From an uncultured Fibrobacter sp. (GTDB lineage: Bacteria > Fibrobacterota > Fibrobacteria > Fibrobacterales > Fibrobacteraceae): DNA of 64,000 nucleotides. Of this stretch, positions 21,943-35,016 are shown piece by piece. Made by a program: the position numbers and the translations under genes. Every line of letters starts with the position of its first letter. Position 1 is the first letter of the stretch. The notes under the pieces were generated by a model that saw nothing but the letters and a program-made list of their open reading frames with translations, did no database searches and was not told the origin of the DNA. The DNA is taken from assembly GCF_947166265.1 (NCBI RefSeq), contig NZ_CAMVDO010000001.1, positions 124,001-188,000 on the forward strand, written 5' to 3'.

Positions 21943-24900
21943 TTAGTCATTTGGGCCCATTTTGAGCAAATAACCGCCTTCGGAGCCCCCGACAGGGCCC
22001 AATTCCACCTTCCAGTCCGAAAGTCGGATGATATCGGGGTGGTGTTCGATGACAATGACGGTATCGCCACGGGCAGACAGCTTGCGGAGCATATTCCAGA
22101 GAATCTGGATATCCTTGAGGTGGAGGCCCGTTGTCGGTTCGTCGAGCAGGTAGACCATTTCCTGAGCTGGCTTGCGGGCAAGTTCCGCAGCCAATTTCAG
22201 GCGCTGGGATTCACCGCCGCTGAGGGTCGTCACGGACTGGCCGAGTTTCACATACGGGAGGCCCACATCGCGCAGACATTCGAGCTTCGGCAAAATTTTC
22301 GGCTGGTCCTTGAAGAATTCGCAGGCTTCGGCGACGCGCATGTCAAGTACATCGGCAATATTCTTGCCCTTGAAGGTGACGGTGAGGGTTTCCTGATTGT
22401 AGCGTTTGCCGCCGCAGACATCGCAGACTTCCCACACGTCCGAAAGGAAGTGCATTTCCACCGAGATAGCGCCACGACCTTCACAGGCCTCGCAGCGGCC
22501 GCGGGCTAAGTTGTAACTGAAGCGCCCATAGTCGAAGCCTTTCAACTTGGCTTGCGGCAGTTTGGCGAACAGCTTGCGGATGTCGTCAAACACGCCCGTG
22601 AAACTCGCGGGCGTGCTGCGAGGAGTTCCCGAAATCGGACTTTGGTCAACCAAAAGAACTTCGCCGTTCTGTTTCTTGCGTCCGCGAGCCTGGAATTTCT
22701 TTTTGAGGCGCGGGTAAATTTCGTCCATGACCATGGAGCTCTTACCCGAGCCGGAAACGCCGCAGACTACACTGATGGCGCCCTTCGGGAACTTTACAGA
22801 CAAATTCTTAAGGTTATTATGATTCAGCTTTTCAAATTCGTAGAATTCTGTGGAATCGGTGATGGGCTTTGCCGCAATCTCATTCGCCATCGGGATAGTA
22901 TGCGTCAGGTACTTGACCGTTTCGCTGCGCGGGAACTGTTGCAAGGCGTATGGCTTGGAGAGCTGTTCGGGAGAACCTTCGGCGACGACTTCACCGCCGA
23001 ACTCACCCGCCGCGGGGCCCATATCGATAATATGGTCCGCCGCCTGCATCATTTTCATGTCATGTTCCACGACCACGAGCGTATTGCCGAGGTCGCGCAG
23101 ACGGTAAAGCGTATTGAGCAACATGGCGGTATCGCTTTCGTGGAGTCCCACCGTGGGTTCATCAAGCACGTAGAGTACACCTTCAAGGCCGCTACCGATC
23201 TGGCTTGCCAGGCGAATACGCTGGGATTCACCGCCGCTGAGCGTGTCGCCCGCGCGGTCGAGGCCGATATAGCCGAGGCCTACCCCCTTGAGGAAGTTCA
23301 GGCGTCCTACAATCTCGCGGAGCAAAGGTTCGGCGACCGTCATCTTGCCGTCGGGATTTTTGTCTTTCCCGAAATTGTCTCGCTTAAAGTTTTCGTTGCT
23401 GAACCATTCGAGCGCCTGGGCGATGCTCATGTGGTTCACATCCATGATATTCTTGTCGCCGATACGAACCGCCAGATATTCCGGTTTCAAGCGTTCACCA
23501 TGGCAATCGGGGCAAACTTCGCCATCTTTAAAATGACCGAGGCCAAGGCAAGTTTCGCAAGCGCCCCAGTGCGTGTTAAAGCTGAAGTGTTTCGGATTGA
23601 GCGCCGAATCCATGTACCAGCCGCATTCCGGGCAGCCCGGCTTTTCGGAGCAGGCCAAACGATTTCCGCTTTCGTCTTCCACATACAAGATTCCGTTACC
23701 GTCGCGGTAGCCGCGTTCAAACGCTTCTACCAAGCGGGCGCGATTGTCTTCTTTCACCACAACCGTATCGACCACAGCGAACAGCTGCTTTTCGCGGGTC
23801 GGAATTTTCGGCAGCGGGAGTTCCACGAGCTTGTCGCCGAGGTAAACCTTGCGATAGCCTTTTTCCGTGAGAATCTTGGAAAGCTTCAGCACGTCCTTGA
23901 TTTCGAACGGGGCAAGCACCGTGACCATTTTATTCAAGTCGCGGTCGAAAGCGTATTGCATCAGGTCGCCCGCGCTGTACGAAGACACAGGCTTCCCGCA
24001 TTTCAGGCAATGCGGGGTCCCGACCCTCGCCCAGAAAATGCGGAAGTAGTCATAAATTTCGGTGAGGGTCGCGACCGTACTGCGCGGACTCTTGCTCGCA
24101 CTCTTCTGGTCAATGGCGATGGCCGGAGCGAGGCCCGAAATGGAATCGATGCTTCCGTGATCGGGGCGTCCGAGGAATCGGCGGGCGTACGTACTTAACG
24201 TTTCGACAAAACGGCGCTGGCCTTCGCTAAAGAGTGTATGGAAAGCGAGGCTCGATTTTCCGGAGCCCGAAACGCCTGTCACCACCGTGAGCTTGTGCCG
24301 CGGAATCGTGACATCGATGTTCTTGAGGTTATGCTTACGAGCACCATGCACCTCAATGTCGAGCGACAAGTCTTCGCCGCCCTTGAGCGTACGGTCAAAA
24401 TGATGGTTTTCGCCATGCTTTTTCGCTAACACCGGCGCAAGGTACTTACCCGTCTCGGACTTCTTGCATTTGGCAATCTGCTCCGGCGTTCCCGTCGCAA
24501 TGATTTTACCGCCGTGGATACCCGCATTCGGGCCCAAGTCGATAATCCAGTCGGCACACTTGATCACATCCAGATTGTGTTCGATAATCACGACGCTATT
24601 GCCGAGGCTACGCAAGCGATTCAGGCAATCCATAAGCTTGCGGATGTCTTCAAAATGCAAGCCCGTCGTTGGTTCGTCAAGCAGATAAAGCGTCTTGCCT
24701 GTTCCTGGGCGGCGCAGTTCCGACGCAATCTTGATACGCTGCGCTTCACCGCCGCTAAGCGTCGTTGAAGGCTGGCCCAAAGTCAAATAGCCAAGCCCCA
24801 CTTCCACCAGCAGGTTCAGTGGTTGCGCAATCTTCGGAATGTCCTTGAAGAACTCCGCCGCATCGGCGATGCTCAAGTCGAGAATTTCAGAAACGTTCTT

Positions 24901-27243
24901 GCCCTTATAATAGACTTCGCGCGTAGCATCGTTAAAGCGCTTGCCGCCGCACACATCGCAAGTCACCTGCACACTCGGAAGAATATGCATATCGACGATT
25001 TTCACGCCCGCGCCTTCGCAGGCATCGCAGCGGCCACCCTTCACGTTAAAGCTGAAACGGCTCTTGCTGTAACCGCGAATCTTGCTTTCTTCCATGCTCG
25101 CGAAAAGGTCGCGCACATCGTCCCAAATCTTGGTGTAAGTCGCAGGATTGCTTCGCGGTGTGCGGCCAATCGGCGTCTGATCGATTTCAATCACCTTGTC
25201 GATATTCTCGAGACCTTCAAGGTGGTCGAATTTTCCGACAGGTTCTTCGGCATTATAGAATACTCGGGCCAATTCGCGACGAAGAATCTGATTGATGAGC
25301 GTACTCTTGCCGGAGCCCGAAACGCCCGTCACTACCGTCAGCGCACCATCAAGCGGAATTTCGACATCGATATTCTTGAGGTTGTTTTCGGCGGCACCGC
25401 AAATCTTTAATTTCGGAGTATCCTTATCAATCTTCTTGCGGGTCGCAGGAATTTCAATTGCCTTGCGTCCGCTCAAATAAGCGCCCGTCAGCGAAGCCTT
25501 ATTCTTCTCGAGTTCCTCGACAGTTCCTGCCGCAATCACGCGACCGCCTTCCACGCCGGCACCCGGCCCCACGTCAATCACGCAGTCCGCATGGCGCATG
25601 GTATCTTCGTCGTGTTCCACGATAATCAGGGAGTTGCCCTGCGCACGCAAATGTTCCAGCATCCCGAGCAGTTTATCGTTATCGCGGGGGTGGAGCCCGA
25701 TGCTCGGCTCGTCAAGTACGTAAAGTACGCCCTGCAGGCCGGCACCCACAGCGCTTGCAAGCCTAATTCGCTGCGCCTCACCGCCCGAAAGCGTGGACGC
25801 CTTGCGGTTGATAGTCAGGTACCCCAGCCCCACTGCATTCAAGAAACTCAAACGCCCACGAATCTCTTTCAGGATTTCCTTGCCGATTCGCTTTTCCTTT
25901 TCGGACAAGTCAACCTTATTGAAAAAATCCACCGACTTTTCAACGGACCATTCCGTCATCTCGGTCAGATTCACACCATGGAAAGTGACCGCATTCGCCG
26001 TGCGGTTGATTCGCGTGCCGTGACATTCAGGGCAAACGCCAATCTGCATATACTTGCGGAAGTGGAAAATGTGCCACATGTCCCACAATTCCTGCATAAT
26101 CGGGATGATACCGCGTTCCGATTCGCTAGGCGTGCCGTACAACACCGCATCCTGTTGCGCTTTCTTGAGTTTGTTCCACGGCGTATCGAGCGAAAAATGC
26201 ATCTCGTTAGCGATGTTACGCAAGTTGCGGCGGCCGAAGTCGCTGAAAATCAGCGTACCGTCATCCTTCTTAATGGTCGCGATGCAGCCATCCTTGATGG
26301 ACTTCGTCTTGTCCGGGATAATCAAATCCAGATCAAACTTGTAGCTTTCGCCCATGCCCTTACAAGCGGGGCAGCGACCCTTCGGGTCGTTAAAGCTGAA
26401 GAAACGCGGTTCTAATTCTGGAATAGAAATGCCGCACTTGGGACAAGCGAGCAACGTCCCCTGCAGGCGATATTCTTCCTTCGCACCAGTCTGCGACGCC
26501 TCCCCCGCACCTGCGGAACCGCCCGCCGACAATAAAAAGCTCACCAGTTTTCCGTCGGTCAGCTTCAGCGCACCTTCCAGAGCCTCGCGCAGACGGCTCA
26601 TATTCTTGCGTTCAAGCGTCAGGCGGTCAATCACAGCTTCAATCGTATGCTTCTCGTAACGCACGAGCGCGGGAACATCTTCCAGGCGGTAAATCGTCCC
26701 GTCTACACGGGCACGCACAAATCCGTTTTCCTTGAGTTCGGCGAGTTCCTTGCGGTATTCACCCTTGCGTTCCTGCACAATCGGCGCCATCACCGTAATC
26801 TGCTTCCCCTCGTCGCTCACATACAAATTATCGACAATCTGGTCCACCGTCTGCGCCTGGATCACGCGCCCACAATCGGGGCAATGCGGCACGCCCAAGC
26901 GCGCAAAAAGCAAGCGGTAATGGTCCAAAATTTCTACCACCGTACCCACTGTGGAACGCGGGTTACGGTTCACCGTTTTCTGATCGATCGAAATCGTCGG
27001 CGAGATACCGCGTACGCTCTCCACCTCGGGGTGTTTCATACGGCCGATGAACTGGCGCGCATACGCCGAAAGCGACTCCACAAAGCGGCGCTGGCCTTCC
27101 TGGAACACCGTATCGAACGCAAGGCTCGACTTGCCCGAACCGGAAACACCGGTCACCACCACGATAGAATCGCGGGGAATGGAAAGGTTCACATGGCGAA
27201 GGTTATGCTCGTGCGCATCGCGGATTTCGATAGATTTGGTCAT
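21943..27243 (-). CDS. uvrA: excinuclease ABC subunit A, tandem double-length form
   Basis: UvrA is the damage-recognition ATPase of nucleotide excision repair and normally works as a dimer of ~940-residue subunits. This protein is 1766 residues and contains two complete UvrA units in tandem, the second starting near residue 965. Walker A sites [10 protein letters not shown] lie near residues 32, 638, 992 and 1492. LSGGEAQRI-type ABC signatures occur in each half. Zinc-finger pairs are present in both: [18 protein letters not shown] and CDVCGG in the first, and [18 protein letters not shown] and CDVCGG in the second. Fused UvrA of about this size is known in Chlamydia. It is a single gene followed by the FGE operon. 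Confidence 0.95.
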
Positions 27244-27360: not shown

Positions 27361-28284
27361 TTACATTTCGAGTTGGCTACGAAGAACAACGACGTCTTCC
27401 AAAGAAAGCCCCGTGGCCGCGACAATTTTCTCGTCAGAATCACCGAGTTTTATCAGATTTTTCGCAATTTCACGAGTACGATCTTCAATCTTCGCATTGA
27501 TATCTTCCGCGAATTCCTTGAAGATGCCGCGCCTCATGGCGTTATGATCCCAGATTTTGTGATACATATCCCGATAAACCTCGAACTCTCTCTTGGAAAA
27601 CTTAGACACTTTTGCGCTTTCTGTCAAGTCCTTGAATTTTTCTTCGTTCAACTCCGCAGGAAGTTCCTTGAGACGATTCAAATAGCGAAAGAAAAACAGC
27701 CACTTGCTCAGGTCGCTAGACGTCTTTTCAATAAAGAAAGGAACCTTTGAAAGTTCAATAGCGGTAAAGTTGTAGGTGTCTACAAGCTGTTCCCCGCTTT
27801 CCAAATCAATTACCGTCCCCCGATGGACAGCACGTTCATCGGGGAAAACCGAGAAACGCGTCAGCGCAATCACGTAAGTCGGCTGAATATCGTAATCCCA
27901 ATCCTGACCGGGTTCGGCCTGATTTGCCACCATCTCGCTCGCATAGAACGCAAGACGCTTCATGAAGTTATCCACTTCGCGAATCTGCACTTCAATTTCA
28001 ATCAAATCACCCGCATCGTCCTTACAATGCAAATCAAAAATCGCCGTACGAGACGCCTTACTTCCACTCAGGTTTTTCGCCACATTACGGGTCCATACGT
28101 TTTTGATGGGCAACTTGAGTTGCGGTTCAAGTAAGTCATTCAGCAAATTTATGAGATTTTGCCGACTGGTAGGCTTGTCTGGGTCAAAGGCCTTCTTGAA
28201 CGCCAAATCAACAAGCAGATTTGCGTACGGGCTCATTTCGCCCGGTTTCACGATACAGTCCTTAAAGGACTTACTTTCTTTCAT
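27361..28284 (-). CDS. Rpn family recombination-promoting nuclease / PD-(D/E)XK transposase-like protein
   Basis: A 307-residue protein of the Rpn/PDDEXK_9 group, restriction-like nucleases often labelled transposases. The N-terminus MSPYANLLVDLAFKKAF is typical of the family. The catalytic core is seen at TAIFDLHCKDDAGDLIEIEVQ (about residues 79-99, one residue over a short quote; key residues are Asp83 and the Glu-x-Gln of IEVQ). Then come the family's FYASEMV and TYVIALTRFSVF. Rpn proteins nick DNA and have been linked to RecA-independent recombination and phage defence. GGAAGGAG precedes the start. It is downstream of, but not overlapping, the methylase-helicase-nuclease operon and has its own terminator. 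Confidence 0.8.
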   Translation of the reverse strand: MKESKSFKDCIVKPGEMSPYANLLVDLAFKKAFDPDKPTSRQNLINLLNDLLEPQLKLPIKNVWTRNVAKNLSGSKASRTAIFDLHCKDDAGDLIEIEVQIREVDNFMKRLAFYASEMVANQAEPGQDWDYDIQPTYVIALTRFSVFPDERAVHRGTVIDLESGEQLVDTYNFTAIELSKVPFFIEKTSSDLSKWLFFFRYLNRLKELPAELNEEKFKDLTESAKVSKFSKREFEVYRDMYHKIWDHNAMRRGIFKEFAEDINAKIEDRTREIAKNLIKLGDSDEKIVAATGLSLEDVVVLRSQLEM

Positions 28285-28427: not shown

Positions 28428-28454
28428 AATTTTGCAAGTGGCACTTGCAAAATT
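28428..28454 (-). terminator. perfect 13-bp stem palindrome ending the helicase-nuclease operon
   Basis: AATTTTGCAAGTG-(one base)-CACTTGCAAAATT, followed on the minus strand by TTATG with several T. It is 57 bp past the GIY-YIG stop codon, as expected for the terminator of that operon. Confidence 0.7.
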
Positions 28455-28510
28455 GGTTCACTTCTAAATTACACTACGTACAACGTCTTTTGGAAATCGG
28501 TGAAGAAAAC

Positions 28511-29722
28511 TTACCGTTCCACTATCTGCTGTATTTTGGCATCGTAGCGGTATTTGACGATCTGCCCCGTGATTATCATTTCAACAGCTCGTTCTATAAC
28601 TGGGAGCGGGACAACAAACCATTCCTTCGGGACATGGCGACGACCTTTTTCATCAAACACATCCACATTCAAACAGCAGGTTCCAAAGAAATTATGAATC
28701 AACTGTTCAAATTTTTGAGGATTCATGTTGAAGCATTTCCAACTCGTAACATGCTTAACGGGGGCCATCAAATATGTTGGCTCCATTTCAGCATTCTTAA
28801 TGCGCTCCTGAACAGATGTCGTGCAGAATCCAATTTTATACAAATTTTCGATGCTAGAAATATTCGGGTCACGACTCAGTGATTTACAGACATAAATAAA
28901 ACCACAAGCCTGGTCATTCTCGTTTATTCCACCAAGCATGTTTTCGACTTCATTGGCTACATCTTCGCTGCTTTCCGTTACCGTTTTTCCATTCAAGTAG
29001 AGCAGTTTTTCAACTGATCGTTTGAGAAGTGCCGCTTCAGTTCCATTTTCAAAAATACAGCGGGTTCGTCCATTCTTGTAAATATGTTTGCCCTCAGGCG
29101 TCACACCGTCATATTGCGAAATTTCAATACTTTCGACAAAGAACAACAAACCGTTATAAACGTAATATCCGCCTGCTTTCAAATCAGAAAGTTTAGAGCC
29201 GATAAGTTTTCTTTTGCCCGCCTTCAAATCCTGCTGAACACGTATAAAATTAGATTCGTATTTTGCAAAATCCTTGCACGGCGTTCTTTGAGCAACAAAA
29301 TCAGCCTCATCTCGGCCAATCGCTTTCTTTACCGCAGGGCGCAAAGCAAATATAGACGAATCTCCCCCTAGCAGCCCTAAGTCATCACCAGCCAGAATAT
29401 CATCAATACTCGCAGGAACAGTTTCTTTATTTAACTCGCCCGAACGTTTTGACACCAAGCCATGAATATCAGCATTATATATGGCTTGATTGTCCTTCAC
29501 CGCTCCGTTTCTAAATGTCTCTAGACGTTTAGCTAAGCGATACTCACCAATATCACCACTATCCGAAGATGGTTCCTTGCCGTGAGACTCATAGAACGCG
29601 TTTATTTCATACAACTCCTGCAAAAGGCGGTCATAATCCGTCGGAGCCGCACTCTTAGGCTTTACATTCAAAAGCCCATCAGGATCATTTGCAAAAATAG
29701 AATCTAGAATATCACTGGCCAT
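28511..29722 (-). CDS. GIY-YIG nuclease, T5orf172-type, of a restriction-like operon
   Basis: A 403-residue protein. The C-terminal domain (about 270-375) fits the T5orf172/GIY-YIG fold: GFIYV (274-278), LYKIGF (294-299), the catalytic-type Arg308 in QERI, and Glu339 in FEQLIHNFF, with KEWF at the end. Residues 35-73 (NAFYESHGKEP ... RLAKRLETFR) match the extreme C-terminus of the adjacent helicase in 15 of 39 positions. The central part is unassigned. It overlaps the helicase gene by 11 bp, so the two are co-translated. It is probably the DNA-cutting subunit of a system with the helicase and the methyltransferase; this is inference from context. Confidence 0.8.
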   Translation of the reverse strand: MASDILDSIFANDPDGLLNVKPKSAAPTDYDRLLQELYEINAFYESHGKEPSSDSGDIGEYRLAKRLETFRNGAVKDNQAIYNADIHGLVSKRSGELNKETVPASIDDILAGDDLGLLGGDSSIFALRPAVKKAIGRDEADFVAQRTPCKDFAKYESNFIRVQQDLKAGKRKLIGSKLSDLKAGGYYVYNGLLFFVESIEISQYDGVTPEGKHIYKNGRTRCIFENGTEAALLKRSVEKLLYLNGKTVTESSEDVANEVENMLGGINENDQACGFIYVCKSLSRDPNISSIENLYKIGFCTTSVQERIKNAEMEPTYLMAPVKHVTSWKCFNMNPQKFEQLIHNFFGTCCLNVDVFDEKGRRHVPKEWFVVPLPVIERAVEMIITGQIVKYRYDAKIQQIVER

Positions 29723-31658
29723 CTCGTTCTCTCTTCTTCTTCCGCAAATAGATCAGGCATTGAGCCAAACGGCTTTCATTAAAATCCATGGAATCAATGT
29801 TCGGTTCTTTTCCGTTCTGCTTGACAAAAGCTTGAACTTTCGGCCATAGAATAAGAGCTTCTTCGTCGGTCATTTCAATACGGGTTGATTCAATCGTCTC
29901 ACGAATCATTTTCAGCACGGCAGGTGTCACCGACTTGGAAAGAACTTCAAAAGCAGCCTGGAACGGATTTATAGAATCAATAAGGTCTATGTGAAGGTCA
30001 TCGATATTCACGAACTTATTTGCCATTCGAATAAAGCGACGATCCACACCATCTTCCCCCTTTACCGTTTCGATGGTCGACTTGCGAATTACGGAATCAA
30101 CAACAACCTGTTCGCGAAGTTCTTCAACTTCTTCATCATTCAAGTCAGGATACTTGGCACGGATGATTTTGGGGATAATGACCTTATTGATTACTTCAGG
30201 GTCACACGCCCCCGGCATTGCTGTTTGCATTGTCTTATCCTGCAATATGGTCGCCTTCAAATCATCAAGGTCAGTCTCTACAATCGCCTTAACACGCTTG
30301 GAAGTAGGTTCCTTGAAGCCTCTTATCTTGATAGTCCCCGGTTCATCCTCGTCATCGTCAGAAACTTTAGTCTTAAAATCCCATTGCGGCGCAAGAACCT
30401 GTTCCATCAAGAGTGAAGCCGTTATCGCCTTGAGCATATTATTTACTGCGACAACAACTTCATCATCCTTCGCTTCGGGCTGCGCGATCAAATTTGTGAA
30501 TTGTGCGTGAGTCTTGTTTTCACTATCACGGGTACAACGCCCGATAATTTGGATGATTTCGGTTAGAGAACCTCGATAACCTACGGTAAGGGCATGTTCG
30601 CAATAAGGCCAATCGAAACCTTCCTTTGCCATACCCAAAGCGATAATCAAGTCCATATCGTCCGGTTTCTCAATTTTTCGCAGATAATCAACAATCTTAT
30701 TGCGGTTACGCGGTTCATCGTCAACCAAGTCAGCAACCTTCAAGATTTTACCATCTTTTTTGCGGCGAACGTAAATAACACCTGTTGCAGAATCCTGTTT
30801 ATCAACAGTTCCTATGCTATCCAGGATAAAATCGACCTCGGAACGCTTGTCCTTCGTTGATTCGCCAGAATTCACATTCGGGATATGGAGAATCGTCTTC
30901 TTGTCAGTATTGAGAACCTCAGTTATGGCGCTTGTATATTTTCCTTGATAGAAATTGTACCCTATGCCAAGCGATTTCAGATACTTATAACCGTTTAATT
31001 GCTCATAATAATTGTAGGTTATCTTGGTAAATTTAGCCTCATCTTCTGCGGTAAGCACAGGCACGGAATCGCCACGGAAATACGAACCCGTCATGGCGAC
31101 AATATGCACACTAGATTTCGCCATTATTGCTCGGAGCATCTCGCCCAAGCGACTAGATTCATCGGCAGAAACATGATGAAATTCATCTATAGCAAGCAGG
31201 CAGTCGTCAAAATCCTTTTCTGGAAAGCCCTCCGTCGCAAAACGTAGCGTCGCATGGGTGCAAATAAGGATTTTTTCGTTACCATTCTTCATAAAATTTT
31301 TGAAGGCATCGACTTTTCCTGTGCTAGAATCGCTCCCTGCCGTGCACAAATTATATTCATCAGACGGGGTCCAATCAGCAAAGAATCCGTTTTTACGTAG
31401 TTCCGTAGGAGCAAAAGACGATCCGATGGAACGTTCCGGCACAGCAACGATTACCTTCTTAAGCCCCTGATGATACAATTTATCAAGAGCAATAAACATA
31501 AGGGCGCGGGATTTACCAGATGCCGGAGGCGACTTAAGCAACAAATATTGCTCTGCACGAGCCGCATAGGCCCTCGCCTGCATTTCACGCATCCCCATAG
31601 AATCCGTTCTAGAGGAATTACCTGTCTGAGCATATTCAAAATGAACAATATCTGGCAT
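29712..31658 (-). CDS. SF2 DEAD/DEAH-type helicase of a restriction-like operon
   Basis: A 648-residue ATPase. Motif I is SPPASGKS (43-50), motif II DEFHH (158-162), motif III-like MTGSY (189-193), motif V GMAKEGFDW (342-350) and motif VI QIIGRCTRD (370-378). This layout resembles the translocase subunits of type I and III restriction enzymes. The last 45 residues carry a small module (AFVKQNGKEPNIDS ... RLAQCLIYLRKK) also found at the N-terminus of the adjacent nuclease. A good GGAGG Shine-Dalgarno sequence precedes the ATG. It is the middle gene of three, 14 bp after the methyltransferase gene and overlapping the nuclease gene by 11 bp. No nuclease motif was seen within it. Confidence 0.85.
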   Translation of the reverse strand: MPDIVHFEYAQTGNSSRTDSMGMREMQARAYAARAEQYLLLKSPPASGKSRALMFIALDKLYHQGLKKVIVAVPERSIGSSFAPTELRKNGFFADWTPSDEYNLCTAGSDSSTGKVDAFKNFMKNGNEKILICTHATLRFATEGFPEKDFDDCLLAIDEFHHVSADESSRLGEMLRAIMAKSSVHIVAMTGSYFRGDSVPVLTAEDEAKFTKITYNYYEQLNGYKYLKSLGIGYNFYQGKYTSAITEVLNTDKKTILHIPNVNSGESTKDKRSEVDFILDSIGTVDKQDSATGVIYVRRKKDGKILKVADLVDDEPRNRNKIVDYLRKIEKPDDMDLIIALGMAKEGFDWPYCEHALTVGYRGSLTEIIQIIGRCTRDSENKTHAQFTNLIAQPEAKDDEVVVAVNNMLKAITASLLMEQVLAPQWDFKTKVSDDDEDEPGTIKIRGFKEPTSKRVKAIVETDLDDLKATILQDKTMQTAMPGACDPEVINKVIIPKIIRAKYPDLNDEEVEELREQVVVDSVIRKSTIETVKGEDGVDRRFIRMANKFVNIDDLHIDLIDSINPFQAAFEVLSKSVTPAVLKMIRETIESTRIEMTDEEALILWPKVQAFVKQNGKEPNIDSMDFNESRLAQCLIYLRKKKRERDGQ

Positions 31659-31672
31659 AATTTAGCCTCCGA

Positions 31673-34378
31673 TTAAACCTTTTTTGTCCGCATACCCGAC
31701 TTTTTCTGGGCTTCAAAAAATGTTTCCTTGTCCCGTTCTTCCTTAATCATCTGTTCATAAAGTTTGAACAGGAATTCAAGACGTTCCTCGTCACTCGAAA
31801 ATGGTTTTGCACGATACAATTTTTCAATGGCAAGATCGTTTGCCTCGTGTGCAGCCTTCAAATCTTCGGGCATTGACTCGGGATCGTATAAGTCAGCGAG
31901 CGTCTTTCCTGGATGATTCTCTCGAGCAGCTATAATGTCAAAAGCTTTTCGTTTAAGGACATTCTTTTGGTCTTCATTGATGTGAGGGAAAGGGAATGTA
32001 TTATAAACAAGTTGAACGGAATAACGAATACGTTCTTCCAACGTTCCTCCGACACTTCGCGCCCAAACATTATGCATTTTCGAGTTTATGACACTAAAAA
32101 TCCAGGATTCAGCATCATAGATTGCGAATGCAGCATTTGAAATAACAACCCCCGAAGAAAAAATATCCGTCGGTATATAAATTCGCTTTTCTGAAGACGT
32201 TTCAGGTAGAATAATAGAATCAGCATTTTTATATCGAATTTCACCAAATTTATATGGAGTATCAGCTAATTTTTGCGTAGCTTTTTTGGGGCTTTTTAAA
32301 CGAAATTCCCTGCATTTTTCAATGCGATTTTTTATTTCAGGATTATCTTTTAAAATTTCATATTGGCCATCTTCAATCCAAAAACAATATCGATTTACCC
32401 CATTAATAAACTCTTCCGCTCCAATATATCGTTTTATACATTGACATAATTCTGGATACCTCACAACAAGGTCTTTTTTATCATTTTCCGAAAGAGCCAA
32501 AAGACCTTTATTGTCAACAGCCTTTGACCCATAACACATTTGAGGAAAGAAACATGTCAGATTCTTATTCCGTTTTTTGATTATTATATCATCATAATCT
32601 AACAGATAGGCATTTTGATTTTTTACCAATTGTTTTCTTGATTCATGATAATGGTATTTGGGCGCATTGCTCTTATTTCTCAATCCAATAACGGTCACAG
32701 CAACACCCGCGTTATGTTGTGCATTGTTAGACCATTTGAAAGAATCATAAGAAAAGAAAATTTCTAGACCAAGTGCGAATATGTTCGGCCATAAAATGGC
32801 AACTTGTTCCCCCTGACATATTGAATTTGTGCTAACAAAAGCGAATTTGGCATTATTCTTTGAGCGAATATAATTCGTTCCTTTATAAAACCAGCAAGTA
32901 ATATAATCTAAATTTTTAAATCCTTTAACATCGCCTACAGCAATTTCTCTATCTTCTTTCTGTTTTTCATCAAGTAAGTTTCCTCCCAAATATGGAGGAT
33001 TTCCCAGCACAAAGATTTCATCGCCTTCATTTTTAGGGCAAACATCTTCCCAATCCAATCGGCACGCATTTCCTTTGACAATATGCCCCGCTTCTTTCAA
33101 GGGTAGCGTCGGGCAGAGTACACCAGTCTTATTAATGAATTCAACATTCATCTGGTGCTCGGTTAACCATAGAGAGAGTTTTGCCGTTTCACAAGCAAAA
33201 TCGTCTATTTCAATTCCATAAAAATGATCAAGATGAATTCCTGTAAGGCCTAATTCGCCTAGTTTTAAAAGAATTTCCATCTCCAGCTTACGCAATTCTT
33301 TGTAAGCAATAATCAAAAAATTTCCCGAACCGCAAGCAGGGTCGAAAACGCGAATACCACGTATACGCATCAGCAATTTTTTCAGTCTCGAAACATTAGA
33401 TCCCGCAATTTCAAATTCTTCCCGCAACTCATTCAAGAACAACGGCTCTATCACCTTCATGATATTGGGAACGCTGGTATAATGCTGCCCCAAGTTACTC
33501 CGCTGCTCCTCGTCGATAACCGTTTGGAACATAGAGCCAAAGATATCTGGATTGATATCCTTCCAATCCAATTCACCACATTCAATAATTTTGTTGCGGC
33601 TATGGGCAGAAAACTTCGGAATCTCAATGCGTGTGCGGAAAAGGCCGCCATTCACATAAGGGAACTTTTCCAAATAATCAGGCAAACCATTTCGTTTGTC
33701 AGCCGGAGTATCAAGCACAACAAAGAGACGACTCAGAAACTCATCTAAGTCCGAACCATCGTCGTGGGTTGATTTCGAAAGAGTATTTACAAACAGATTG
33801 TCCGTAAAAATTCCTGTATCTTCGGCGAAAAAACAGAAAAGTAACCTGGAGAGGAACAAGTTCAAATCGTGGGGAGTAATTGATGTATTCTCGTTATCTT
33901 TCCTGATTTCATCAAAAAGTTTCGCCATCTTGCGGGCTGCACGAACATCGGCAGGGTTTTCATCGATGTATTCCGCCTTTTCGATGCCAGCCCACGGTAG
34001 GAAGAACGCATAATGTTTGGGTAAATCCTTGTAAGGCGTTTCCAATGTATCGCCATTCTTTGTATCAACACAAAGCAGTAAATCGCCATCGGTAAGTATG
34101 ACGAACCTTTCATTATACTTGATTGCTTTCGCCGTAGCAAGAGCAACCCCGATATTCAACTCACCCTTAAAGAACGACTTATAAAGAAGTTTATCCTTCC
34201 AATTAATCTCACCGGGCCGTGTCGCACGGTTCAGCGTTCCATTCTGGAGTCTTGAAACCGATGCCTTGGGGAGACCGTACGCAAGAATCAAATCGTAGAT
34301 AAAAGATTCGTCAACGCCCTCAGGATAACGTTCGACAAGGGCAGCAACCTGGGATTCAATCTCTGATACATTCGGCAT
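31673..34378 (-). CDS. MmeI-like N6-adenine DNA methyltransferase
   Basis: A 901-residue class I methyltransferase. From the ATG at 34378 (AGGAG eight bases upstream; an in-frame TTG at 34384 is less likely) motif I is FDPACGSGNF (about 345-354) and motif IV is GNPPY (about 459-463), the gamma-class N6-adenine pattern. LGQHYTSVPNIMKVIEPLFL and GIEIDDFACETAKLSLWLTE match MmeI-type enzymes, and a target-recognition region should lie at about 600-830. MmeI itself has an N-terminal D...ExK nuclease; here the corresponding first ~150 residues show only RFVILTDGDLLLCVDTKNGD and no clear nuclease set. The gene is AT-rich compared with its surroundings and leads the operon with the helicase and GIY-YIG nuclease. 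Confidence 0.85.
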   Translation of the reverse strand: MPNVSEIESQVAALVERYPEGVDESFIYDLILAYGLPKASVSRLQNGTLNRATRPGEINWKDKLLYKSFFKGELNIGVALATAKAIKYNERFVILTDGDLLLCVDTKNGDTLETPYKDLPKHYAFFLPWAGIEKAEYIDENPADVRAARKMAKLFDEIRKDNENTSITPHDLNLFLSRLLFCFFAEDTGIFTDNLFVNTLSKSTHDDGSDLDEFLSRLFVVLDTPADKRNGLPDYLEKFPYVNGGLFRTRIEIPKFSAHSRNKIIECGELDWKDINPDIFGSMFQTVIDEEQRSNLGQHYTSVPNIMKVIEPLFLNELREEFEIAGSNVSRLKKLLMRIRGIRVFDPACGSGNFLIIAYKELRKLEMEILLKLGELGLTGIHLDHFYGIEIDDFACETAKLSLWLTEHQMNVEFINKTGVLCPTLPLKEAGHIVKGNACRLDWEDVCPKNEGDEIFVLGNPPYLGGNLLDEKQKEDREIAVGDVKGFKNLDYITCWFYKGTNYIRSKNNAKFAFVSTNSICQGEQVAILWPNIFALGLEIFFSYDSFKWSNNAQHNAGVAVTVIGLRNKSNAPKYHYHESRKQLVKNQNAYLLDYDDIIIKKRNKNLTCFFPQMCYGSKAVDNKGLLALSENDKKDLVVRYPELCQCIKRYIGAEEFINGVNRYCFWIEDGQYEILKDNPEIKNRIEKCREFRLKSPKKATQKLADTPYKFGEIRYKNADSIILPETSSEKRIYIPTDIFSSGVVISNAAFAIYDAESWIFSVINSKMHNVWARSVGGTLEERIRYSVQLVYNTFPFPHINEDQKNVLKRKAFDIIAARENHPGKTLADLYDPESMPEDLKAAHEANDLAIEKLYRAKPFSSDEERLEFLFKLYEQMIKEERDKETFFEAQKKSGMRTKKV

Positions 34379-34384
34379 AAACAA

Positions 34385-35016
34385 GGCTCCTGTTTACGCC
34401 TCTTGCCCTGACGTTCAATCCACGCTTTTAATGCAATAGAAAAAGGCGTGAGTCAATACGTTTACCACGACTGCGGCCCTAGACTAAGCCTTAACCCGAT
34501 AAACGCACGACCCACGCCCCATAAAGGGCACAATGCACCAAAGACCCAGACTGAATCTGGGCATGGACATAGCGATGCACTAGCTTGCACCAATGCATGC
34601 GTGAGCGTTCGCCTTGTTCTCGGGTTTGAAATTGTCTAGGTTTCAGTCGTGAGAACAAGAGACAAAACTCTTTATACTGATAATATAAGTAAATATGCGA
34701 GAATTAGATTGCCACAGTCCTTAAAAGGACCTTGCAATGACGTGCGAGGCGAGAGCAGCAGAATCGCATGCGAGTTCTATTGTCGAGCCGATGCAGTCAT
34801 GCGTTCTGCGCAATGGCAAAACAAGGCGTGACAAATTGGGGGGGTGGACTGGGTAAGCCGGGCGTTACGGGTGTGGCGTATGAACACCCGTTAGAAGGGG
34901 TGGCGGATGGTTCGGCAGGCTCACCAACCTTTTCCGTCACTTTTCGCCTGACGAAACAGAAGTCAGGGGGAGGCCTCCCCCATCAAACAAGAACTCTTTC
35001 CGTACAGTTCATAGGC
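34385..35016. other. gene-free region with strong stem-loops; possible structured RNA
   Basis: No convincing coding frame was found. Structures seen: CCCAGA-ctgaa-TCTGGG near 34547-34563; a GTTCTC ... GAGAAC stem with inner TTTGAAA/TTTCA pairing (34616-34656); GCAGAATCGCATG (34758-34770) with CATGCGTTCTGC (34798-34809), 12 pairs with one bulge; ACGGGTGT (34867-34874) with ACACCCGT (34884-34891); CCTGAC with GTCAGG (34947-34967); and the perfect GGGGGAGGCCTCCCCC (34966-34981). The cluster of stems between 34740 and 34985 is dense enough to suggest a non-coding RNA or a mobile-element remnant. It does not match tmRNA, RNase P RNA or SRP RNA signatures that I know. Confidence 0.4.

What the first reader, a model, noticed from the sequence alone, without database searches (positions are those of the whole stretch)
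28511..34378. Three-gene methylase-helicase-GIY-YIG nuclease operon that looks like an uncommon restriction-type defence system
Seen directly: three adjacent minus-strand genes, spaced 14 bp and then overlapping 11 bp, encode an MmeI-like adenine methyltransferase, an SF2 helicase with complete motifs and a T5orf172/GIY-YIG nuclease, ending at a perfect palindromic terminator. Established: methylase plus translocase plus nuclease is the logic of restriction-modification. The combination of an MmeI-type methylase with a separate helicase and GIY-YIG nuclease does not fit the usual type I, II or III layout, BREX or DISARM. Inference: a self-methylating anti-phage system in which the GIY-YIG protein cuts.
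Basis: partly seen in the sequence, partly recalled or inferred. Interest (0 to 1): 0.75.

Follow-up and report, generated by a model that had tools for sequence, protein, structure and literature searches.

The report
Known DnmA–YeeB–YeeC system, new leader RNA
The three genes are a new copy of an already described, widespread and probably phage-fighting DNA-modification cluster (DnmA-YeeB-YeeC), but in this Fibrobacter genome they sit behind an undescribed, repeatedly used structured RNA that also precedes several unrelated restriction systems and surface-protein genes.

Summary
In detail: three minus-strand genes, spaced 14 bp and then overlapping by 11 bp, encode an MmeI-type adenine methyltransferase, an SF2 helicase and a GIY-YIG protein with intact motifs. 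"Uncommon" is wrong. This is the DnmA(YeeA)-YeeB-YeeC cluster of Bacillus subtilis (PMC7261158, PMC9973331). At least 589 helicase relatives turned up in a genome collection, and 67 of 80 loci kept hold all three genes. All 58 trio methyltransferases aligned lack the PD-ExK motif of MmeI. Fibrobacter copies are horizontally moved, with replaced target-recognition domains. Other phyla insert guest defence genes only between methyltransferase and helicase, as type I operons do. Best reading: a type I-like restriction-modification system with a split restriction part. Activity is untested.

The new element lies just upstream (34440-34665): a ~226-nt RNA ending in its own terminator, with three covarying long-range helices and no Rfam match. 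It occurs in 89 of 168 Fibrobacterota genomes, in one family only. Elsewhere it precedes type III, type ISP-like and Tsp45I-type systems, cytosine methyltransferases and Fib_succ_major surface proteins. I propose a shared leader or attenuator; its function is inferred.

The parts
31673..34378 (-). DnmA/YeeA-type MmeI-family N6-adenine DNA methyltransferase with built-in target-recognition domain (aa 596-799); N-terminal PD-ExK motif absent
   Evidence: Pfam MmeI_N/hel/Mtase/TRD/C; 628 bits to MmeI 5hr4, aligned from residue 90 on only; no D..ExK in any of 58 trio methyltransferases while the genome's other MmeI keeps it
29712..31658 (-). YeeB-type SF2 helicase/translocase
   Evidence: Pfam DEAD/ResIII/Helicase_C; motifs invariant; SF2 fold, with HsdR and LlaBIII among many generic structural matches
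28511..29722 (-). YeeC-type T5orf172/GIY-YIG putative nuclease
   Evidence: Pfam MUG113 2.7e-12, T5orf172 2.1e-09; G274, Y277, K296, I297, G298, R307, E339 invariant in 57 sequences; GIY-YIG region pLDDT above 90
34440..34665 (-). Structured leader RNA: 5' hairpin, variable middle hairpins, 3' terminator stem (34520-34440) ending in TTTTT about 60 nt before the methyltransferase ATG; three long-range covarying helices
   Evidence: no Rfam match
28466..34703 (.). Horizontally shared block: leader RNA with its upstream region plus the three genes
   Evidence: about 89% nt identity to G138:C20 (L130) and, except the target-recognition segment, to G068:C18 (L129), with non-homologous flanks; nuoN of those genomes is only 85% / 71% identical and on other contigs; G+C of the genes 0.39-0.44 against 0.525 for the window
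28428..28454 (-). A+T-rich 13-nt inverted repeat downstream of the last gene; terminator function unsupported

Best explanation
The locus is a DnmA-YeeB-YeeC restriction-modification cassette. The MmeI-type protein reads a short asymmetric site through its own target-recognition domain and methylates one adenine. Its nuclease motif is lost and the nuclease is supplied in trans: when it meets an unmethylated site it recruits the YeeB translocase, which moves along DNA, and the GIY-YIG protein YeeC cuts. It therefore works like a type I system with the specificity part fused to the methyltransferase and the restriction subunit split in two. Shown: domains, loss of PD-ExK, intact active-site residues, conserved order and coupling, target-domain replacement, horizontal transfer. 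Inferred: methylation, complex formation, translocation, cutting, phage defence. In Fibrobacter the cassette is probably transcribed through a host-lineage leader RNA that ends in a terminator and may gate its expression (inferred).
For: Domain and motif conservation. PD-ExK absent in 58 of 58 trio methyltransferases, while the same genome's stand-alone MmeI keeps D...IEQK. All three genes in 67 of 80 loci; where nothing is inserted the gene joins are tight, and the helicase-nuclease join typically overlaps by 8-11 nt. Guest genes (Schlafen/AlbA, RhuM, Bro-N, Fic, AAA_13, a GajA-like OLD ATPase, YhcG) sit between methyltransferase and helicase, a layout also reported for type I operons (PMC11411939). 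Target-domain identity is 0.43 against 0.77-0.98 elsewhere in the same protein between window and G068. On 147 plasmid records at 80% coverage or more. Published: DnmA methylates GACGAG, and V. crassostreae deletions sensitise to phages (PMC7261158, PMC9973331).
Against: B. subtilis dnmA, yeeB and yeeC deletions had no phage or transformation phenotype (PMC9973331, PMC7261158). The window locus is not in an obvious defence island; its neighbours are the nuo genes, a double-length UvrA and an Rpn-family gene. No methylation or phage data exist for this strain. No solved structure resembles YeeC by sequence.
Confidence: 0.65

Rival explanations
1. The cluster is a restriction relic: the methyltransferase is kept as an orphan epigenetic regulator, and the helicase and GIY-YIG genes are inactive or do something else.
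For: Conclusion reached for B. subtilis (PMC9973331), including no phage avoidance of the motif and no phage phenotype.
Against: Helicase and GIY-YIG catalytic residues are invariant across phyla, the Fibrobacter copies are intact and were transferred as a whole, and the B. subtilis proteins are reported to lack stretches present in the Vibrio ones (PMC9973331).
Confidence: 0.15
2. The GIY-YIG protein is a DNA-binding sensor or recruiter rather than the cutter; the cluster blocks phage without cutting at specific sites, more like BREX.
For: T5orf172 domains are described as largely uncharacterised domains with predicted DNA-binding roles (PMC9973331); the N-terminal 250 residues of YeeC have no assigned fold, with only weak matches to small beta-barrel proteins.
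Against: The residues expected for GIY-YIG catalysis are invariant; no PglZ- or BrxC-type gene is next to the trio.
Confidence: 0.15
3. The conserved element upstream of the trio is not a cis-regulator but a separate small RNA or a DNA-level site (for example an attachment site) used to load accessory genes.
For: It has its own terminator, is nearly palindromic so that the model also hits the opposite strand weakly, and nearly the same RNA (97%) precedes an unrelated type III system in another species.
Against: The nearest downstream ORF is on the same strand in 33 of 39 copies, at a modal distance of about 50-77 nt; G-U outnumber A-C oppositions 22 to 8 in the covarying helices, pointing to RNA of this strand.
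Confidence: 0.3

Closest known systems
DnmA(YeeA)-YeeB-YeeC cluster of Bacillus subtilis, with a homologous cluster in Vibrio crassostreae (PMC7261158, PMC9973331)
   Same: Nuclease-less MmeI-family methyltransferase, SF2 helicase and T5orf172/GIY-YIG gene in the same order and orientation
   Different: The Fibrobacter copy has its own target-recognition domain and a lineage-specific leader RNA; no direct alignment to the B. subtilis proteins was made here
MmeI, type IIL restriction-modification enzyme (PDB 5hr4)
   Same: Methyltransferase, target-recognition and C-terminal domains (628 bits)
   Different: PD-ExK nuclease motif lost; helicase and nuclease supplied by separate genes
Type I restriction-modification (HsdRMS)
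   Same: Logic of methyltransferase plus translocase plus nuclease; guest defence genes embedded in the operon
   Different: No HsdS; no nuclease domain found on the translocase; GIY-YIG nuclease on its own gene
Attenuator or riboswitch leaders, for the RNA at 34440-34665
   Same: 5' structured RNA followed by an intrinsic-type terminator before the ORF, with two competing folds predicted
   Different: No Rfam family matches; heads unrelated accessory genes in one bacterial family only

Membership tests
DnmA-YeeB-YeeC cluster | MmeI-family methyltransferase without PD-ExK | tested here: met
DnmA-YeeB-YeeC cluster | SF2 helicase gene directly downstream, same strand | tested here: met
DnmA-YeeB-YeeC cluster | T5orf172/GIY-YIG gene next, same strand | tested here: met
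DnmA-YeeB-YeeC cluster | m6A at a non-palindromic motif | not testable with these tools
   needs native long-read data
DnmA-YeeB-YeeC cluster | direct sequence homology of all three proteins to B. subtilis YeeA, YeeB and YeeC | not tested
   the B. subtilis sequences were not fetched; placement rests on family assignment, gene order and the published description
[quoted passage not shown]
Type I RM | separate HsdS and an HsdR with PD-ExK fused to the helicase | tested here: not met
   the target-recognition domain is in the methyltransferase; the helicase matches only DEAD/ResIII/Helicase_C
BREX | PglZ and BrxC-type ATPase beside the methyltransferase | tested here: not met
   no such domain in the neighbouring genes scanned
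DISARM | DrmA, DrmB and DrmC | tested here: not met
   none by PADLOC in the trio; only partial methyltransferase similarity to DrmMI; neighbours scanned by Pfam only
Rfam RNA families (leader RNA) | match to any of 4227 models | tested here: not met
   no match at E<=1 for the window copy; in five further loci only one chance-level match elsewhere in L012

The most novel reading that the evidence does not exclude
The RNA at 34440-34665 is a member of an undescribed class of leader RNA, restricted to Fibrobacteraceae, that jointly controls many horizontally acquired restriction systems and surface proteins. Its terminator stem competes with a long-range fold held by three hypervariable but covarying helices, so that expression of DNA-modifying and surface genes is gated by a common signal.
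Probability: 0.4. Interest if true: 0.8.

Novelty: new member of a known kind. Interest (0 to 1): 0.55.

Why it matters
The trio adds comparative evidence (motif invariance across phyla, target-domain replacement, guest-gene insertion at one joint) that DnmA-YeeB-YeeC is a working type I-like defence system and not a relic, an open question since the B. subtilis work. The leader RNA, if regulatory, would show how one bacterial lineage puts unrelated restriction systems and surface proteins under one RNA-based control; it is testable with simple reporter fusions.

Tried and rejected
Rejected: a new trio architecture (it is published). Rejected: BREX, DISARM, type IIL and classical type I membership (feature tests). 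Rejected: the 3' palindrome as a supported terminator. Papers on a Fibrobacter structured RNA: none among the results listed. A cis-acting leader could not be separated from a stand-alone small RNA by computation.

Full report
OBSERVATION. Methyltransferase 31673-34378, helicase 29712-31658 and GIY-YIG gene 28511-29722 all lie on the minus strand, with a 14-bp gap and an 11-bp overlap. Pfam assigns all five MmeI domains to the first, DEAD/ResIII/Helicase_C to the second and MUG113/T5orf172 to the third. The palindrome after the last gene is real (13-nt arms), but it is not called as a terminator and is not conserved in sister copies.

IDENTITY. Gene content, order and orientation match the dnmA(yeeA)-yeeB-yeeC cluster of Bacillus subtilis. 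There the methyltransferase makes m6A at GACGAG, the cluster was suggested to be a type I-like system, and neighbours of DnmA homologs are most often YeeB- and YeeC-like (PMC7261158; PMC9973331). PMC9973331 reports no phage effect of the deletions in B. subtilis, but cites phage sensitisation on deletion of dnmA and yeeB in Vibrio crassostreae. The system is not rare. Of the 80 loci kept (62-98% identity; many bacterial phyla and an archaeal MAG), 67 also encode the other two proteins; most of the rest end near a contig edge. It is on 147 plasmid records at 80% coverage or more. I did not align the window proteins to the B. subtilis ones directly.

THE METHYLTRANSFERASE HAS LOST ITS NUCLEASE. 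In an alignment of the window protein with 57 other trio methyltransferases, none has the D...ExK motif in the N-terminal region, whereas the second MmeI-type protein of the same genome (L131, G000:C2) reads RADGYISATRVLIEQK. Alignment to MmeI itself starts only at residue 90. The GIY-YIG residues G274, Y277, K296-I297-G298, R307 and E339 are invariant in 57 sequences, and so are the main helicase motifs. So the nuclease seems to be supplied by the third gene. A short two-helix segment at the end of the helicase resembles one at the start of the GIY-YIG protein, but the profile match is weak (probability 18%).

MOBILITY AND SPECIFICITY CHANGE. In 168 Fibrobacterota genomes the helicase was found in only five (including the window's own), three of them in the window's genus. 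That genus is Fibrobacter: the G138 contig has the length and match of a F. succinogenes MAG record. The block 28466-34703 is about 89% identical to blocks in G138 and G068 with unrelated flanks, while nuoN of those genomes is 85% and 71% identical and lies elsewhere. The trio genes have 39-44% G+C against 52.5% for the window. Between window and G068 the target-recognition domain is 43% identical, while the N-terminal, spacer and C-terminal parts are 91-98%: the specificity domain has been replaced.

GUEST GENES. In 35 of 68 loci where both genes were measured, more than 150 bp separates methyltransferase and helicase, and this gap usually holds other genes (two of the 35 are frameshifted methyltransferases). 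In contrast, the helicase-nuclease joint is nearly always a short overlap. Guests include Schlafen/AlbA plus HATPase_c_4, RhuM, Bro-N, Fic, AAA_13, an AAA_15/OLD-TOPRIM protein next to a UvrD-like ORF (the latter by eye) and YhcG. Defence genes embedded in type I operons are known (PMC11411939). The window copy has no guest.

MECHANISM. I therefore favour a type I-like system with fused methylation and specificity and a split restriction part (helicase plus GIY-YIG). The rest of the cycle (one-strand methylation, recruitment, translocation, cutting) is inferred from MmeI and from type I, III and ISP enzymes. A methyltransferase that modifies one strand leaves one daughter duplex unmodified after replication, so a safeguard such as a need for two sites or for translocation is expected (my inference).

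THE LEADER RNA. Comparing sister copies showed that the shared block begins about 320 bp upstream of the methyltransferase, in non-coding DNA conserved also in a rumen contig labelled Treponema. This element recurs in the window's genome and in 39 of 41 Fibrobacter genomes tested by DNA search. Aligned copies show a 5' hairpin, a variable middle and a 3' stem ending in a T run. Three segments of the 5' part (X, Y, Z) are complementary to three of the 3' part (Z', Y', X'). Their sequences differ from copy to copy, yet complementarity is kept. On the first 34 parsed copies: X 23 distinct pairs, all fully paired; Y 11 (97% paired); Z 18 (95%). Permuted partners gave about 60%, and none of 20,000 permutations reached the observed values. 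On 83 copies: 38, 14 and 29 distinct pairs with 97, 87 and 93% paired, again 0 of 20,000, and 22 G-U against 8 A-C oppositions, which favours RNA of this strand. The permutation does not model relatedness of copies. The terminator stem is also maintained, mostly by exchanges such as G-C to G-U. Single-sequence folds give either the long-range fold (window copy) or the local hairpin plus terminator (others), so a two-state attenuator is plausible but not shown.

DISTRIBUTION AND TARGETS OF THE RNA. A covariance model of the 3' part (R1) hits 89 of 168 Fibrobacterota genomes in 4 of 41 genera, all in one family, with up to 27 hits per genome; opposite-strand hits on the near-palindrome inflate some counts. 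Of the first downstream ORFs of 67 copies, 21 carry Fib_succ_major, 13 are C5 cytosine methyltransferases, 2 EcoRI-type methyltransferases, 1 is the MmeI-type of this window, 1 a type III methyltransferase and 1 a UvrD-PDDEXK gene followed by another N6_N4 methylase. C5 methyltransferases number about two per genome (88 matched pieces in 41 genomes), so 13 of 67 is a strong enrichment, though several of the 13 look like the same gene in different species. In the window's own genome the RNA also precedes a Tsp45I-type restriction enzyme with its methylase and a type ISP-like methyltransferase. An RNA 97% identical to the window's precedes a type III system in another species. First ORFs were picked by my own script and some starts are uncertain; copies were taken from the best DNA matches, not at random.

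LIMITS. There are no expression, methylation or phage data here. The Treponema-labelled contig may be mis-binned; that MAG has a second, divergent copy of the RNA. The covariation is the strongest evidence; regulation is inferred.

VERDICT. The trio is a new member of a known kind. The leader RNA is the unexpected part.

Noticed in passing
window 34440-34665 (-): Structured leader RNA family with three covarying long-range helices and its own terminator; no Rfam match; present in 89 of 168 Fibrobacterota genomes.
   Followed up: yes
L258 (G000:C48), L259 (G000:C9): In the same genome the RNA precedes a type ISP-like methyltransferase and a Tsp45I-type restriction enzyme with its methylase.
   Followed up: yes
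L178 2056-6941, L179: RNAs 97% and 89% identical to the window's precede a type III Mod/Res pair in two other Fibrobacter genomes in which the trio helicase was not found.
   Followed up: partly
L194, L200, L216: RNAs in front of C5 cytosine methyltransferases are followed by a longer gap (260-400 nt) and, in three checked, by a second partial copy of the 5' block.
   Followed up: partly
L260 2360-5125 (-): The RNA precedes a pair of septin/MMR_HSR1-type GTPase genes in the window's genome.
   Followed up: no
L041 4265-7958: A Gabija-like pair (AAA_15 + OLD TOPRIM ATPase, UvrD-like ORF by eye) is nested between methyltransferase and helicase of the trio.
   Followed up: partly
L131 7303-10086 (G000:C2): Second MmeI-type enzyme of the same genome, with PD-ExK kept and no leader RNA hit on its contig.
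   Followed up: partly
window 21943-27243 (-): Double-length UvrA of 1766 aa.
   Followed up: no
window 27361-28284 (-): Rpn/PDDEXK_2 family gene next to the trio.
   Followed up: no
L012, G168: A rumen MAG labelled Treponema carries the trio at about 80% helicase identity with the leader RNA and a second divergent RNA copy; mis-binning or transfer.
   Followed up: partly
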